Positions 13,344-20,863 of a stretch of 44,593 nucleotides of DNA are shown one piece after another. The notes beneath the pieces were generated by a model. It was not told the origin of the DNA. It searched no databases and saw only the letters and a list, made by a program, of their open reading frames with translations. A program made the position numbers and the translations under genes. Numbering within the stretch: the first letter of the stretch is position 1; the number at the start of each line of letters is the position of its first letter. Origin of the DNA: an uncultured Acidimicrobiales bacterium (lineage in GTDB: Bacteria; Actinomycetota; Acidimicrobiia; Acidimicrobiales; SHLQ01); the NCBI GenBank assembly GCA_905479685.1, contig CAJQNJ010000047.1, positions 1 to 44,593 on the forward strand, read 5' to 3'.

Positions 13344-13364
13344 GTTGAGTGTATGTGACTAAGG
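13344..13364. promoter_or_regulatory. Distal HAIR-like HspR site (GTTGAGT-N7-ACTAAGG)
   Basis: Partial match to CTTGAGT-N7-ACTCAAG. Confidence 0.55.
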
Positions 13365-16018: not shown

Positions 16019-16945
16019 GTGGAAGCGCAACGTGATTGGTTGGAGAAGGACTACTACCGCGTCCTCGGTGTCGAAGCGACCGCGACGGCAAAAGAGTTGT
16101 CGAAGGCGTATCGGACGCTGGCGCGCAAGTACCACCCAGATACGAATCCTGGCGACACGTCCACCGAGGATCGATTCAAAGAAATCTCCTCGGCCTACGA
16201 GGTCGTTGGAGACGAGGCCACTCGAAAAAAGTACGACGAGTTCCGGCGTCTCGGCGGCGGAGGCGGCGGGTACGGAGGGTTCGGTCAACGCGGTCAACAA
16301 AATGTGGGTGACCTGGGTGACTTGTCTGACCTCCTCGGCGGCCTCTTTGGAGGTGGTCGAGCATCGGGGTCCACGGGTCGTGGCGGGTTTGGCTTCGGAC
16401 CGATGCCAGGGACCGACTTACAGGCGCAATTGACATTGTCATTCGAAGAGGCGGTCACGGGCGTCACCAAGACGGTTCGACTGAACTCGGAGGCGCTGTC
16501 GAGTCCGATGGAGGTCACAGTCAGGATTCCCGCTGGCGTGCGAAATGGACAACGGATTCGTGTGCCTGGCCGGGGCGCCCCATCGTCTGACGGGGGAGAT
16601 CCGGGCGATCTTCTCGTTTCGATCACCATCACGCCGCACGAGGTATTCGACCGTGATGGGAACAATCTCCTGGTCGATGTTCCGATCACCTACGCCGAGG
16701 CCGTCCTCGGAGCAGACGTGAAGGTGCCAACGATCGGCGGCGGAACAGTCACTGTTCGGGTGCCCCCAGGTACGCCGTCGGGCAAGGTGATGCGCGTTCG
16801 TGGCCGGGGCGTGAAAAGCTCTTCCCAAGGCGGTGATCTTCTCGTGACCGTTTCTGTCCATGTTCCAACCGATCCCAATGATGCCGAACGCGCACTGGTA
16901 GAAAAACTCGCCGATGTGTCAACGCCGGCTCCAAGGGGTAGCTGA
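16019..16945 (+). CDS. dnaJ: DnaJ-family co-chaperone lacking the CxxCxGxG zinc-finger region (CbpA/type II-like)
   Basis: J domain DYYRVLGVEATATAKELSKAYRTLARKYHPDTNPGD; G/F-rich segment; C-terminal beta domains without CxxCxGxG repeats. Confidence 0.93.
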   Translation: MEAQRDWLEKDYYRVLGVEATATAKELSKAYRTLARKYHPDTNPGDTSTEDRFKEISSAYEVVGDEATRKKYDEFRRLGGGGGGYGGFGQRGQQNVGDLGDLSDLLGGLFGGGRASGSTGRGGFGFGPMPGTDLQAQLTLSFEEAVTGVTKTVRLNSEALSSPMEVTVRIPAGVRNGQRIRVPGRGAPSSDGGDPGDLLVSITITPHEVFDRDGNNLLVDVPITYAEAVLGADVKVPTIGGGTVTVRVPPGTPSGKVMRVRGRGVKSSSQGGDLLVTVSVHVPTDPNDAERALVEKLADVSTPAPRGS

Positions 16946-17322
16946 TGGCACGCGTCACTTCTGCGGTCTATGTGATTTCGGTGGCGGCTGAGTTGTCCGG
17001 CATGCATCCCCAGACGCTGCGTATTTACGAACGGAAGGGCCTCGTTCATCCGGCCCGTACCTCCGGTGGGTCGCGTCGGTACAGCGATTCTGACGTTGCA
17101 CTTCTTCAACGCATCTCCGAACTCACTTCGCTCGGGATGAATCTGGTCGGCGTGAAAAAAGTGCTCGACCTCGAGCGCAGAGTCCAGGAGCTCGAGAGGG
17201 AATTGGCCAAGCATCGTTCTTCGCGGCGAGAAGTCAGCGATGCCGTGCGCGAGACAGAGCGAAGTTATCGGCGCGATCTTGTGCCGCTCCGCCAAACAGT
17301 GACGATCTACGAAGAACTCTGA
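16945..17322 (+). CDS. hspR: HspR, MerR-family heat-shock repressor
   Basis: VYVISVAAELSGMHPQTLRIYERKGLVHPARTSGGSRRYSDSDVALLQRISELTSLGMNLVGVKKVLDLE; dnaK-grpE-dnaJ-hspR order. Confidence 0.95.
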   Translation: MARVTSAVYVISVAAELSGMHPQTLRIYERKGLVHPARTSGGSRRYSDSDVALLQRISELTSLGMNLVGVKKVLDLERRVQELERELAKHRSSRREVSDAVRETERSYRRDLVPLRQTVTIYEEL

Positions 17323-18212
17323 CTGTTTCTGATCCGTGCCTGACGGGCCCGGCGGGAGTCACCGGCGGCTCGTAGCGCGTCGGGGTCGTCAGTCGACATG
17401 TACGTAGCACGCCAATTTTTCGGGCCGTTCCAGGTGACGGGAAGCACCACGGTCGAGCGTGAACGCTGTGCTGTCTCTGCGAACTGCAACGCCGCCAGAA
17501 GAATGCGGCGTTGTTGGTCGGGGTCCCCACTCGGTCCGACGGGATTGCCGAGAGGAAGATCGGTGAAGGCAAATCTCGGAACTCCGACCTCGTCGATGAT
17601 GTCGAGTGCGGATCCGATGATGATCGTCGAGATACCGTTTGCTTCAAGATGGCGTGCGGTCAGACCGACCGTTTGATGACATACCGGTCAGAGCGGGATG
17701 AGTACAACGAGGTCTACATCGTCTTTCGTGAACTCCTGATGGAGTTCCGCGGCCCAGGTCTCCGTTCGCCGCTGACTGTAGACCGTCGGGATTCCGGCAA
17801 ATCGTGGAGCGAGTGCGCCAATGATCCCGTCATCAGCCAGTTGACGAAGGTGGTCGAGTGGCAAGAAGGATCCGAGATCGTCGGTCGTTGTTGCCTCCTT
17901 GTGCCAAGAGAGGTGTTCGGTAGTCATCGACGTAGGGGCAGGAGTGGAGGGCGCGGTGTACGGCTCGAGCGGTGCGTCGCGTTCCAGCGATGCAGTGGTG
18001 ATGACGCCCACCCGGCATTCGGCCAAGGGTCTGCGCAGAGGCGCGAAGGGGGCTTCGGTGTGTGCCGCCCACCGATATGGAACGCGGTAACCCTGAGCGG
18101 CGTAGTACGCGCGTGATTTGTCGATGTAGCGGACGAAGGTGTGAGGATCGTGCGTCACTCCATCAGTGTGGCAGGTCGGTGTCGAATCGACGAGGGTCGC
18201 TGGATTGAGCAT
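17307..18212 (-). CDS. Predicted selenoprotein, GrdB/PrdB-related (glycine/sarcosine/betaine/D-proline reductase selenoprotein B family); TGA 17688-17690 read as Sec; likely start GTG (VTHDPHTFVRYIDKSRAYYAAQGY) or ATG 18212
   Basis: ORF 17688-18212 ends ...DVDLVVLIPL-TGA; same frame continues PVCHQTVGLTARHLEANGISTIIIGSALDIIDEVGVPRFAFTDLPLGNPVGPSGDPDQQRRILLAALQFAETAQRSRSTVVLPVTWNGPKNWRATYM... to TAG 17307-17309 with no other stop; UxxC motif; GGUC-loop hairpin 3' of the TGA. Confidence 0.85.
17657..17671 (-). promoter_or_regulatory. Candidate bacterial SECIS apical stem-loop (CGGUC-GGUCU-GACCG)
   Basis: On the minus strand: UGACCGGUAUGUCAUCAAA[CGGUCGGUCUGACCG]CACGCC; 5-bp perfect stem, GGUCU loop like the GGUC loop of E. 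coli fdhF SECIS. Confidence 0.75.
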
Positions 18213-18270: not shown

Positions 18271-18291
18271 GTTGAGTCATGTGTACTCAAC
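18271..18291. promoter_or_regulatory. HAIR HspR-binding inverted repeat (GTTGAGT-CATGTGT-ACTCAAC) upstream of clpB
   Basis: Perfect 7+7 inverted repeat with 7-nt spacer, 12/14 match to CTTGAGT-N7-ACTCAAG. Confidence 0.9.
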
Positions 18292-18376: not shown

Positions 18377-20863
18377 ATGGCAATCGATCCAAATCAGTGG
18401 ACACAAAAGACCCGCGAAGGGTTCATAGCCGCACAAGAGTTGGCCAAGGCAGAGTCTCACCCGGAGGTCACGCCAGACCATCTCCTCCTGGCGCTTGTCG
18501 GACAGGCCGACGGCATCGTCTTGCCGATCTTGCAGCGGCTCGGTCAAGAGCCTCTCGCGGTTCGAAATCGTCTGACCGAACGACTTGGCGAACTCCCCAA
18601 AGCCTTTGGGGCCGAAACGCAGCAGTCTCGCGAGCTCATCAATGCATTCGATGCTGCCGAGATCGTCCGAAACGATCTGGGCGACGACTACTTGTCCACA
18701 GAGCACTTGTTGCTGGCCCTTTCCACCCGCCTCGAGTTGGATCGATCCGAGGTTCTCGAGGCGCTGCGAGAGGTTCGCGGGTCACATCGGGTGACCAGTC
18801 AGAACCCCGAAGATCAGTACCAGTCGCTCGAGAAGTACGCACGGGATCTGACCGCTGCGGCGCGTGCGCAAAAGCTCGACCCGGTGATCGGGCGTGACGA
18901 CGAGATCCGCCGGGTGATCCAGGTGCTGTCGCGTCGCACGAAGAACAATCCTGTACTCATCGGCGAACCCGGGGTAGGCAAGACGGCAATCGTCGAAGGC
19001 CTCGCGAATCGAATTGTCGAAGGTGATGTACCCGAGTCGCTGAAGAACAAGACGATCATGTCCCTCGATCTCTCATCGATGGTCGCGGGTGCCAAGTACC
19101 GGGGCGAGTTCGAAGAGCGCCTCAAGGCGGTGCTCAAGGAGATCGAAGACTCCGATGGCGAGATCATCACGTTCATCGACGAACTCCATACCGTGGTGGG
19201 CGCTGGTGCCGGTGGCGAGGGTGCGATGGACGCCGGCAACATGCTCAAGCCGATGCTCGCTCGCGGTGAGTTGCGTATGGTCGGCGCAACCACACTCGAT
19301 GAGTTTCGCAAGTACATCGAAAAGGATGCTGCGCTGGAGCGTCGGTTCCAGCAGGTTCTCGTCGATCCGCCATCGGTCGAGGACACGATTGCGATCCTGC
19401 GCGGTTTGGCCGAGCGTTACGAAGTTCACCACGGCGTGCGCATCCAAGACGCCGCCCTCGTCAGCGCGGCCGTTCTCTCCGACCGATACCTGACCGGTCG
19501 GTTCCTGCCAGACAAGGCGATCGACCTCGTCGATGAAGCTGCCTCGAAACTACGTATCGAGATCGATTCGGTTCCCATGGAGATCGATGTGGTCGATCGT
19601 CGTGTTCGACAACTCGAGATGGAACGGGTTGCACTCGAAAAGGAGTCGGACCGCGCATCGAAGGAGCGGCTTGCCGACCTCGAGGTGGAGGTGGCAGATC
19701 TCACCGAGAAGCTGAGTGCGATGAAGGTGCATTGGCAAAGCGAGAAGGATGCGATCGCAGAAATTCGGACCCGTAAGGAGCAGCTGGAACAATTGCGGCT
19801 CGATGTCGACCGCGAATCCGATCTGAACAAAGCGGCCGAAATTCGATACGGCCTCATCCCAACGCTCGAAGCCGAGATCGATGACGCGACGTCGCGACTC
19901 GACGAATTGCAGGGCGACAACGTGATGCTCAAAGAAGAGGTCGATGCCGAAGACGTCGCTGAGGTGGTCAGCGCATGGACCGGCGTGCCCGTCTCGCGTT
20001 TGCTCGAAGGTGAGATCCAGAAGCTCATTCGCCTCGAGGAAGTTCTCCATGAGCGCGTGATCGGCCAAGAAGATGCGGTGGCCGTGGTTGCGAATGCAAT
20101 TCGCCGGAGCCGGGCGGGTCTGTCCGATCCGCATCGGCCGATCGGCAGTTTCCTCTTTCTCGGCCCGACCGGTGTTGGAAAGACCGAACTCGCTCGATCG
20201 CTCGCGGATTTCTTGTTCGACGACGAGCGAGCGATGATCCGCATCGACATGAGTGAGTACATGGAAAAGCACTCCGTGTCCCGACTCATCGGGGCCCCGC
20301 CCGGCTACGTCGGGTACGACGCTGGCGGGCAACTCACTGAAGCGGTGCGGCGGCGGCCATATGCCGTCGTCTTGCTCGACGAGGTCGAAAAGGCGCACGC
20401 CGATGTCTTCAACGTGCTCCTGCAGTTGCTCGACGATGGGCGGCTGACCGATGGTCAAGGCCGCACGGTGAACTTCTCGAACGTTGTCTTGATCATGACA
20501 TCGAACCTCGCCGGAGATCCCAACGATTTCTTCCGGCCAGAATTCATCAACCGCATCGACGACATGGTGCGGTTCCGCGAGCTCACTGAGAGCGACCTCC
20601 GAGAGATCGTTGACATTCAGCTCTCGTTGTTCCAGGCACGCCTCACATCCCGACGAATCGATCTGGACGTGAGCGCTGAGGCTCGATCCTGGCTGGCCAA
20701 AGAGGGGTATGACCCGGCCTTTGGTGCTCGACCGCTCAAACGGGTGGTGCAGCGTGAGGTGGCCGACAAATTGGCGATTCACTTGCTCGACGGGACGTTC
20801 GCCGAGGACTCATCGATCTCGGTCGGCGTGTCGGCCGATGGTACGAGCCTCGAATTCGCCTGA
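18377..20863 (+). CDS. clpB: ATP-dependent disaggregase ClpB
   Basis: N domain; NBD1 [16 protein letters not shown]; coiled-coil middle domain; NBD2 [34 protein letters not shown]. Confidence 0.96.

What the first reader, a model, noticed from the sequence alone, without database searches (positions are those of the whole stretch)
17307..18212. Cryptic selenoprotein: one GrdB/PrdB-related gene split by an in-frame TGA in a UxxC motif
Seen directly: minus-strand ORF 17688-18212 (174 aa) stops at TGA 17688-17690, and the same frame continues without another stop to TAG 17307-17309. Around the TGA it reads ...KDDVDLVVLIPL-[TGA]-PVCHQTVGLTARHLEANGISTIIIGSALDIIDEVGVPRFAFTDLPLGNPVGPSG..., so the highly protein-like sequence carries on immediately. 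Established knowledge: Sec is often found in UxxC redox motifs, and as I recall Cys homologues of this 'selenoprotein B, glycine/betaine/sarcosine/D-proline reductase' family read ...CPVCHQ(T/S)V... at this position. Inference: the TGA is Sec, giving a ~300-aa redox protein. Automated callers would report a truncated protein plus a 60-aa orphan, or the antisense ORF 17511-18116. The 3' end overlaps convergent hspR by 16 bp.
Basis: partly seen in the sequence, partly recalled or inferred. Interest (0 to 1): 0.95.

Follow-up and report, generated by a model that had tools for sequence, protein, structure and literature searches.

The report
PrdB-like selenoprotein gene beside clpB
A gene that looks cut in two by a stop codon is really one gene for a selenium-containing redox protein: the 'stop' is read as selenocysteine, relatives in several bacterial phyla have the same arrangement, and the family has been known from ocean surveys since 2005 although its function is not known.

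Summary
The minus-strand frame 17307-18212 is one gene with TGA at 17688-17690. That TGA encodes selenocysteine with near certainty. The genome has SelA, SelB and a tRNA-Sec with anticodon TCA. TGA is the ordinary stop of 10 of 13 neighbouring genes, so UGA is recoded locally, not reassigned. Of 80 relatives from several phyla, 78 have TGA at exactly this codon and 2 have Cys; another Cys copy lies in the same bacterial order. A SECIS hairpin just 3' of the UGA covaries strongly. The window's own small clade has lost one pair of the common hairpin but can form one 4 nt further downstream. It is a member of a known kind: the Sec 'PrdB' (UxxC, GRDB superfamily) of marine metagenome surveys and reviews. 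It is not D-proline or glycine reductase: it scores 78 bits against the PrdB equivalog cut-off of 300, and PrdA and GrdA are absent from its genome and family. What seems new is local: in this genus the gene sits between hspR and clpB, divergent from clpB across a perfect HspR operator (HAIR). The function is open; most likely it is a stand-alone selenol/thiol reductase whose Cys178 resolves Sec175.

The parts
17307..18212 (-). Selenoprotein gene of the PrdB-like/GRDB superfamily, 301 aa from ATG 18212 (283 aa from the likelier GTG start at 18158); stop TAG 17307-17309
17688..17690 (-). UGA codon read as selenocysteine (U175, UPVC motif; C178 is the partner)
17660..17676 (-). Position of the family-wide SECIS hairpin (nt 15-20 paired with 26-31, T of TGA = 1); in the window one pair (18x28, A-C) is lost
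17657..17671 (-). Alternative SECIS hairpin CGGUC-GGUCU-GACCG (nt 20-24 with 30-34, loop 25-29), -7.2 kcal/mol, also possible in L002, L006, L007 and L008
18156..18158 (-). Likely true start codon (GTG), by comparison with congeners
18271..18291 (.). HAIR-type HspR operator GTTGAGT-N7-ACTCAAC between this gene and clpB
16945..17322 (+). hspR (MerR-family heat-shock repressor), convergent, 16 bp overlap at the 3' ends
18377..20863 (+). clpB, divergent from the selenoprotein gene

Best explanation
The gene encodes a selenocysteine-containing protein of the PrdB-like branch of the GRDB superfamily. SHOWN by sequence: one continuous frame, UGA at the position of a Cys/Sec redox residue, a covarying hairpin immediately 3' of the UGA, and SelA, SelB and tRNA-Sec in the same genome. 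ESTABLISHED mechanism applied here: SelB-GTP carrying Sec-tRNA(Sec) binds the hairpin and decodes the UGA, giving U175-P-V-C178. INFERRED: Sec175, at the N-cap of an alpha helix after a beta strand, is the attacking selenolate of a stand-alone reductase (small-molecule or thiol/disulfide substrate). C178 resolves it as a selenenylsulfide, which a thioredoxin-type donor then reduces. It does not belong to a Prd or Grd Stickland complex. INFERRED, weaker: in the species where the gene shares the HAIR region with clpB, HspR controls it together with the chaperones. I put the selenoprotein call at about 0.97, the stand-alone redox role at about 0.5, and HspR control at about 0.45. The confidence below is for the selenoprotein and family call together with 'not a Stickland subunit'.
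For: Sec/Cys at the site: 78 TGA and 2 Cys of 80 loci in Acidimicrobiia, Alpha-, Beta-, Gamma- and Deltaproteobacteria, Chloroflexota and Binatota; a Cys copy CPVCHQ in G057, which also has Sec paralogues; two Cys copies in Roseomonas and Haematobacter. Machinery. All 14 Sec-bearing genomes tested elsewhere have SelB over cut-off, while Cys-bearing Bradyrhizobium pachyrhizi has none. In 59 relatives, homologues occur in 29 of 42 genomes with SelB over cut-off and in 2 of 17 without (Fisher p = 1e-4). SECIS: 93.9% of cells paired against 79.9% shuffled, covariation 0.443 against 0.161, 0 of 500 shuffles; slid versions pair 39% or less. Among 98 Sec sequences the synonymous CAA/CAG and TTG/CTG codons are coupled (72+13 matched, 4 wobble, 4 broken), and where Ser follows it is encoded by AGT in 76 cases and AGC in 1. 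TGA is a normal stop here. Model: pLDDT 92.6, strand 168-172, helix 176-191 starting next to U175. PrdA and GrdA absent from own genome and family. HAIR and synteny.
Against: No protein-level proof of Sec. SelD not found in this assembly. In the window itself the family hairpin has an A-C mismatch (-1.6 kcal/mol), and the 51-nt stretch as a whole folds no better than shuffles, so the recoding signal of this copy rests on the shifted hairpin. Function: no solved relative by sequence or fold and no constant gene partner. HAIR lies next to clpB wherever it was found; in G003, G005 and G010 the selenoprotein gene is kilobases away from it.
Confidence: 0.93

Rival explanations
1. The TGA is a sequencing or assembly error, or the gene is a recent nonsense-mutated pseudogene.
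For: The window is a contig of a metagenome-assembled genome (85.3% complete, 246 contigs).
Against: The same codon is TGA in independently assembled genomes of many genera and phyla, the downstream half is conserved at 41-73% identity in most close homologues, and the TGA-proximal hairpin covaries.
Confidence: 0.01
2. UGA is reassigned to Trp or Gly in this organism, or read through non-specifically, so no selenium is involved.
For: An open frame under TGA = any residue is by itself compatible.
Against: 10 of 13 neighbouring genes end in TGA, Cys and not Trp or Gly replaces it in homologues, and SelA, SelB and tRNA-Sec(TCA) are present.
Confidence: 0.01
3. The protein is the PrdB subunit of a true D-proline reductase, or GrdB of a glycine/betaine/sarcosine reductase, working in Stickland fermentation.
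For: TIGR04483 (PrdB) is the best family, 5.5e-22; Pfam GRDB is just over its gathering score; surveys label such proteins PrdB (PMC2398784).
Against: 78.4 bits against the equivalog cut-off of 300. PrdA has no hit in the own genome or any family member, and in the order only 26-36 bit hits in 5 other genomes. GrdA is absent from the own genome and family; the same 5 other genomes have it with its own TGA.
Confidence: 0.05
4. The protein is a catabolic reductase for an organic substrate (reductive cleavage of a C-N, C-S or C-X bond), not a thiol/disulfide redox protein.
For: GrdB and PrdB cleave C-N bonds (review PMC13188914). Many distant homologues lie near CoA-transferase, acyl-CoA dehydrogenase, AMP-ligase, SDR and luciferase-like monooxygenase genes.
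Against: Those neighbours are abundant gene families with varying order; no operon is conserved across groups; in this genus the neighbours are chaperone genes.
Confidence: 0.35

Closest known systems
'Proline reductase PrdB' selenoproteins of the Sargasso Sea and Global Ocean Sampling surveys (PMC1088965, PMC2398784)
   Same: Sec in a UxxC motif, GRDB superfamily, Cys homologues, many environmental bacteria (42 and 235 Sec sequences reported)
   Different: In the passages read the surveys give no gene context and take proline reductase function from the name. No direct sequence comparison with the survey sequences was possible here, so identity with that set is inferred.
Clostridial D-proline reductase subunit PrdB (TIGR04483)
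   Same: Best-scoring curated family over residues 54-260; UxxC motif listed for it in PMC13188914
   Different: Far below the equivalog cut-off (78 of 300 bits); no PrdA in the genome or family
Glycine/betaine/sarcosine reductase selenoprotein B (GrdB, PF07355, TIGR01917)
   Same: Pfam GRDB 23.1 bits, over the gathering score of 22; match in the C-terminal region of the model
   Different: TIGR01917 33 of 602 bits; no GrdA in the genome or family; about 300 aa instead of about 430
NCBI-named 'glycine/sarcosine/betaine reductase selenoprotein B family protein' (e.g. WP_207415257.1 Roseomonas, WP_035710215.1 Haematobacter)
   Same: 48-49% identical over the C-terminal 100 residues, CPVCHQ/CPICHQ at the site
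   Different: Cys instead of Sec; the hairpin is not kept

Membership tests
Bacterial selenoproteins (UGA-encoded Sec) | In-frame UGA with homology continuing on both sides | tested here: met
Bacterial selenoproteins (UGA-encoded Sec) | Homologues with Sec (UGA) or Cys at the same position | tested here: met
   78 TGA + 2 Cys of 80; further Cys copies
Bacterial selenoproteins (UGA-encoded Sec) | SelA, SelB and tRNA-Sec in the genome | tested here: met
Bacterial selenoproteins (UGA-encoded Sec) | SelD in the genome | tested here: inconclusive
   Not found in this 85%-complete assembly; found in all 10 congeners, in G003, G005 and G010 about 40-45 kb from selB, while the selAB contig here is 36 kb long
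Bacterial selenoproteins (UGA-encoded Sec) | SECIS hairpin just 3' of the UGA | tested here: met
   Covariation in the family; in the window itself only the shifted hairpin is intact
Bacterial selenoproteins (UGA-encoded Sec) | Selenium in the protein | not testable with these tools
   Needs 75Se labelling or mass spectrometry
GRDB superfamily (PF07355) | Score over Pfam gathering threshold | tested here: met
   23.1 bits against 22, narrowly
D-proline reductase PrdB (TIGR04483) | Equivalog score of at least 300 bits | tested here: not met
   78.4 bits
D-proline reductase PrdB (TIGR04483) | PrdA partner encoded | tested here: not met
   No hit in G000 or in any of 18 other genomes of the family f1; own genome incomplete
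Glycine reductase GrdB (TIGR01917) | Equivalog score of at least 602 bits | tested here: not met
   33.2 bits
Glycine reductase GrdB (TIGR01917) | GrdA partner encoded | tested here: not met
   Absent from G000 and its family f1
HspR regulon | HAIR operator at the promoter | tested here: inconclusive
   Perfect inverted repeat 18271-18291 between the gene and clpB; promoter and binding not shown; the promoter scan found no sigma-70-type site

The most novel reading that the evidence does not exclude
In this Acidimicrobiales genus a Sec-dependent PrdB-like reductase has been moved into the hspR-clpB heat-shock locus and is co-induced with the chaperones through a shared HAIR operator. It would be a selenium-dependent arm of the actinobacterial protein-quality-control response. 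In the same clade the recoding hairpin has slid by 4 nt during evolution through an intermediate that can form both.
Probability: 0.3. Interest if true: 0.6.

Novelty: new member of a known kind. Interest (0 to 1): 0.42.

Why it matters
The gene shows how a widespread environmental selenoprotein family is lost to table-11 annotation: a 174-aa truncated protein, an orphan tail, or an antisense ORF. The family occurs in Acidimicrobiia and several other phyla; in the window's own family it occurs without the Prd or Grd partners that gave it its name, so its physiological role is an open question. The hspR-clpB location in one genus gives a first testable lead (stress and proteostasis), and the Sec/Cys pairs give natural controls.

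Tried and rejected
Folding the single window sequence downstream of the UGA: no better than shuffles; covariation over homologues was needed. Conserved gene neighbourhood as a clue to substrate: none outside the genus; hits are abundant CoA-metabolism families. Solved structures by sequence: nothing. Fold search of a confident model (pLDDT 92.6): no match with E below 0.001 in PDB or the viral library; best TM about 0.3, not interpreted. Sigma-70 promoter and terminator scan: nothing. Direct comparison with clostridial PrdB sequences was not made, no scan being left.

Full report
CHECK OF THE OBSERVATION. The frame is as described. Translating window 17307-18212 (-) with TGA = U gives 301 residues, one TGA at codon 175 and a TAG at the end. 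The truncated ORF and the antisense ORF exist as stated. Openness alone would be weak evidence (chance about 1.5% for 126 codons). The conserved homology on both sides of the TGA is decisive. Congeners suggest the GTG at codon 19 as the true start, and residues 1-21 are mostly disordered in the model.

WHAT IT IS. NCBIfam places it nearest PrdB (TIGR04483, 5.5e-22, 78 bits, cut-off 300), and Pfam GRDB matches just over its gathering score. In 59 relatives, 31 genomes have homologues, nearly all with exactly one TGA. Read in frame, the TGA falls in the U of UPVCHQ, or of UPLCTR, UPECTR, UPFCNR or UPVCQQ in distant branches; G057 has one copy with CPVCHQ besides Sec paralogues. Of the 80 best, from Acidimicrobiia, Alpha-, Beta-, Gamma- and Deltaproteobacteria, Chloroflexota and Binatota, 78 have TGA and 2 have Cys (phyla). 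Two plasmid-borne relatives annotated by NCBI have Cys.

MACHINERY. The window's genome (MAG, 85% complete) has SelA and SelB side by side on one contig and tRNA-Sec with anticodon TCA. SelD was not found but is in all 10 congeners. In G003, G005 and G010 it lies roughly 40-45 kb from selB on the same contig, and the selAB contig here is only 36 kb long, so an assembly gap is the simplest reading. Fourteen Sec-bearing genomes from other groups all have SelB; the Cys-bearing Bradyrhizobium pachyrhizi has none, while another Cys-bearing genome keeps it. TGA ends 10 of 13 neighbouring genes, so UGA is not reassigned.

RECODING SIGNAL. A hairpin with pairs 15-20/26-31 (T of TGA = 1) and a five-base loop, most often CGUGA or GGUCG, is present across the family: 93.9% of cells paired, covariation far beyond shuffles and slides. 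On 98 Sec sequences CAA goes with TTG and CAG with CTG, both synonymous changes. Cys copies do not keep the loop and pairs consistently. The window, L002, L006 and L008 break one pair (A18 x C28) but can form CGGUC-GGUCU-GACCG 4 nt downstream (-7.2 against -1.6 kcal/mol for the window). L007 can form both, which suggests a slide of the signal in this clade; that is inference.

SETTING. The gene lies between hspR (convergent, 16 bp overlap) and clpB (divergent), with a perfect HAIR palindrome at 18271-18291. The same arrangement is found in G002 and G006. In G003, G005 and G010 the gene is in the same region with purK, a MocR-type regulator or other genes in between; in other genera it is elsewhere. 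The genus clade of the gene is well supported (100/99); G001 of the same genus carries a copy from another branch, not seen beside clpB. HspR represses dnaK and clpB through HAIR in actinobacteria (PMC8223512). Co-regulation of the selenoprotein gene is plausible but untested; HAIR lies next to clpB wherever found, so clpB may be its only target.

FUNCTION. The Stickland reading is not supported: PrdA and GrdA are absent from the genome and its family, while five other families of the order have GrdA with its own TGA. The model (pLDDT 92.6) is an alpha/beta fold with U175 directly before helix 176-191 after strand 168-172; both residues 175 (Sec or Cys) and 178 (Cys) are invariant in 61 aligned relatives. 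No solved structure is close. I therefore favour a stand-alone selenol/thiol reductase with C178 as resolving residue; a catabolic bond-cleaving reductase is the main rival.

NOVELTY. Sec 'PrdB' with UxxC was the third most abundant known family in the Sargasso Sea (42 genes, PMC1088965), had 235 Sec and 110 Cys members in Global Ocean Sampling data (PMC2398784), and is in the 2022 and 2026 reviews (PMC9312934, PMC13188914). The gene is a new member of that kind. The hspR-clpB location and the shifted hairpin are the parts I did not find described in the papers searched.

Noticed in passing
L059:4921-5673 (-) (own genome, contig C61): Second PrdB-like selenoprotein gene in the same genome, UPVCHQ with its own hairpin, about 35% identical to the window's.
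   Followed up: partly
L001, L002, L006, L007, L008, nt 15-34 after the TGA: Apparent 4-nt slide of the SECIS hairpin within one clade, with L007 able to form both versions.
   Followed up: partly
L163, L164 and the G039, G046, G058 hits: GrdA with an in-frame TGA in five other families of the same order, with GRDB-type hits nearby in four of them; none in the window's family.
   Followed up: partly
hits (L077, L078, L081, L082 against G003-G005, G007, G009, G010): Two kinds of SelD within one genus: forms with an in-frame TGA, and about 730-840 aa open frames (probably fusions) without one.
   Followed up: no
window 13344-13364: Partial HAIR-like sequence (3 mismatches) upstream of dnaK (13403).
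   Followed up: no
L165:1976-4361 (Roseomonas haemaphysalidis plasmid p546-2): A Cys-containing relative lies directly beside selO (protein adenylyltransferase SelO), convergent.
   Followed up: no
L013 (G035): Homologue with the TGA and also one TAA within the matched stretch; the TAA was not examined.
   Followed up: no
L023-L025, L028: Distant branch with UPLCTRTV or UPECTRTV at the Sec site, also with hairpin; L028's genome (G019, 84% complete) showed no SelB or tRNA-Sec over cut-off.
   Followed up: partly
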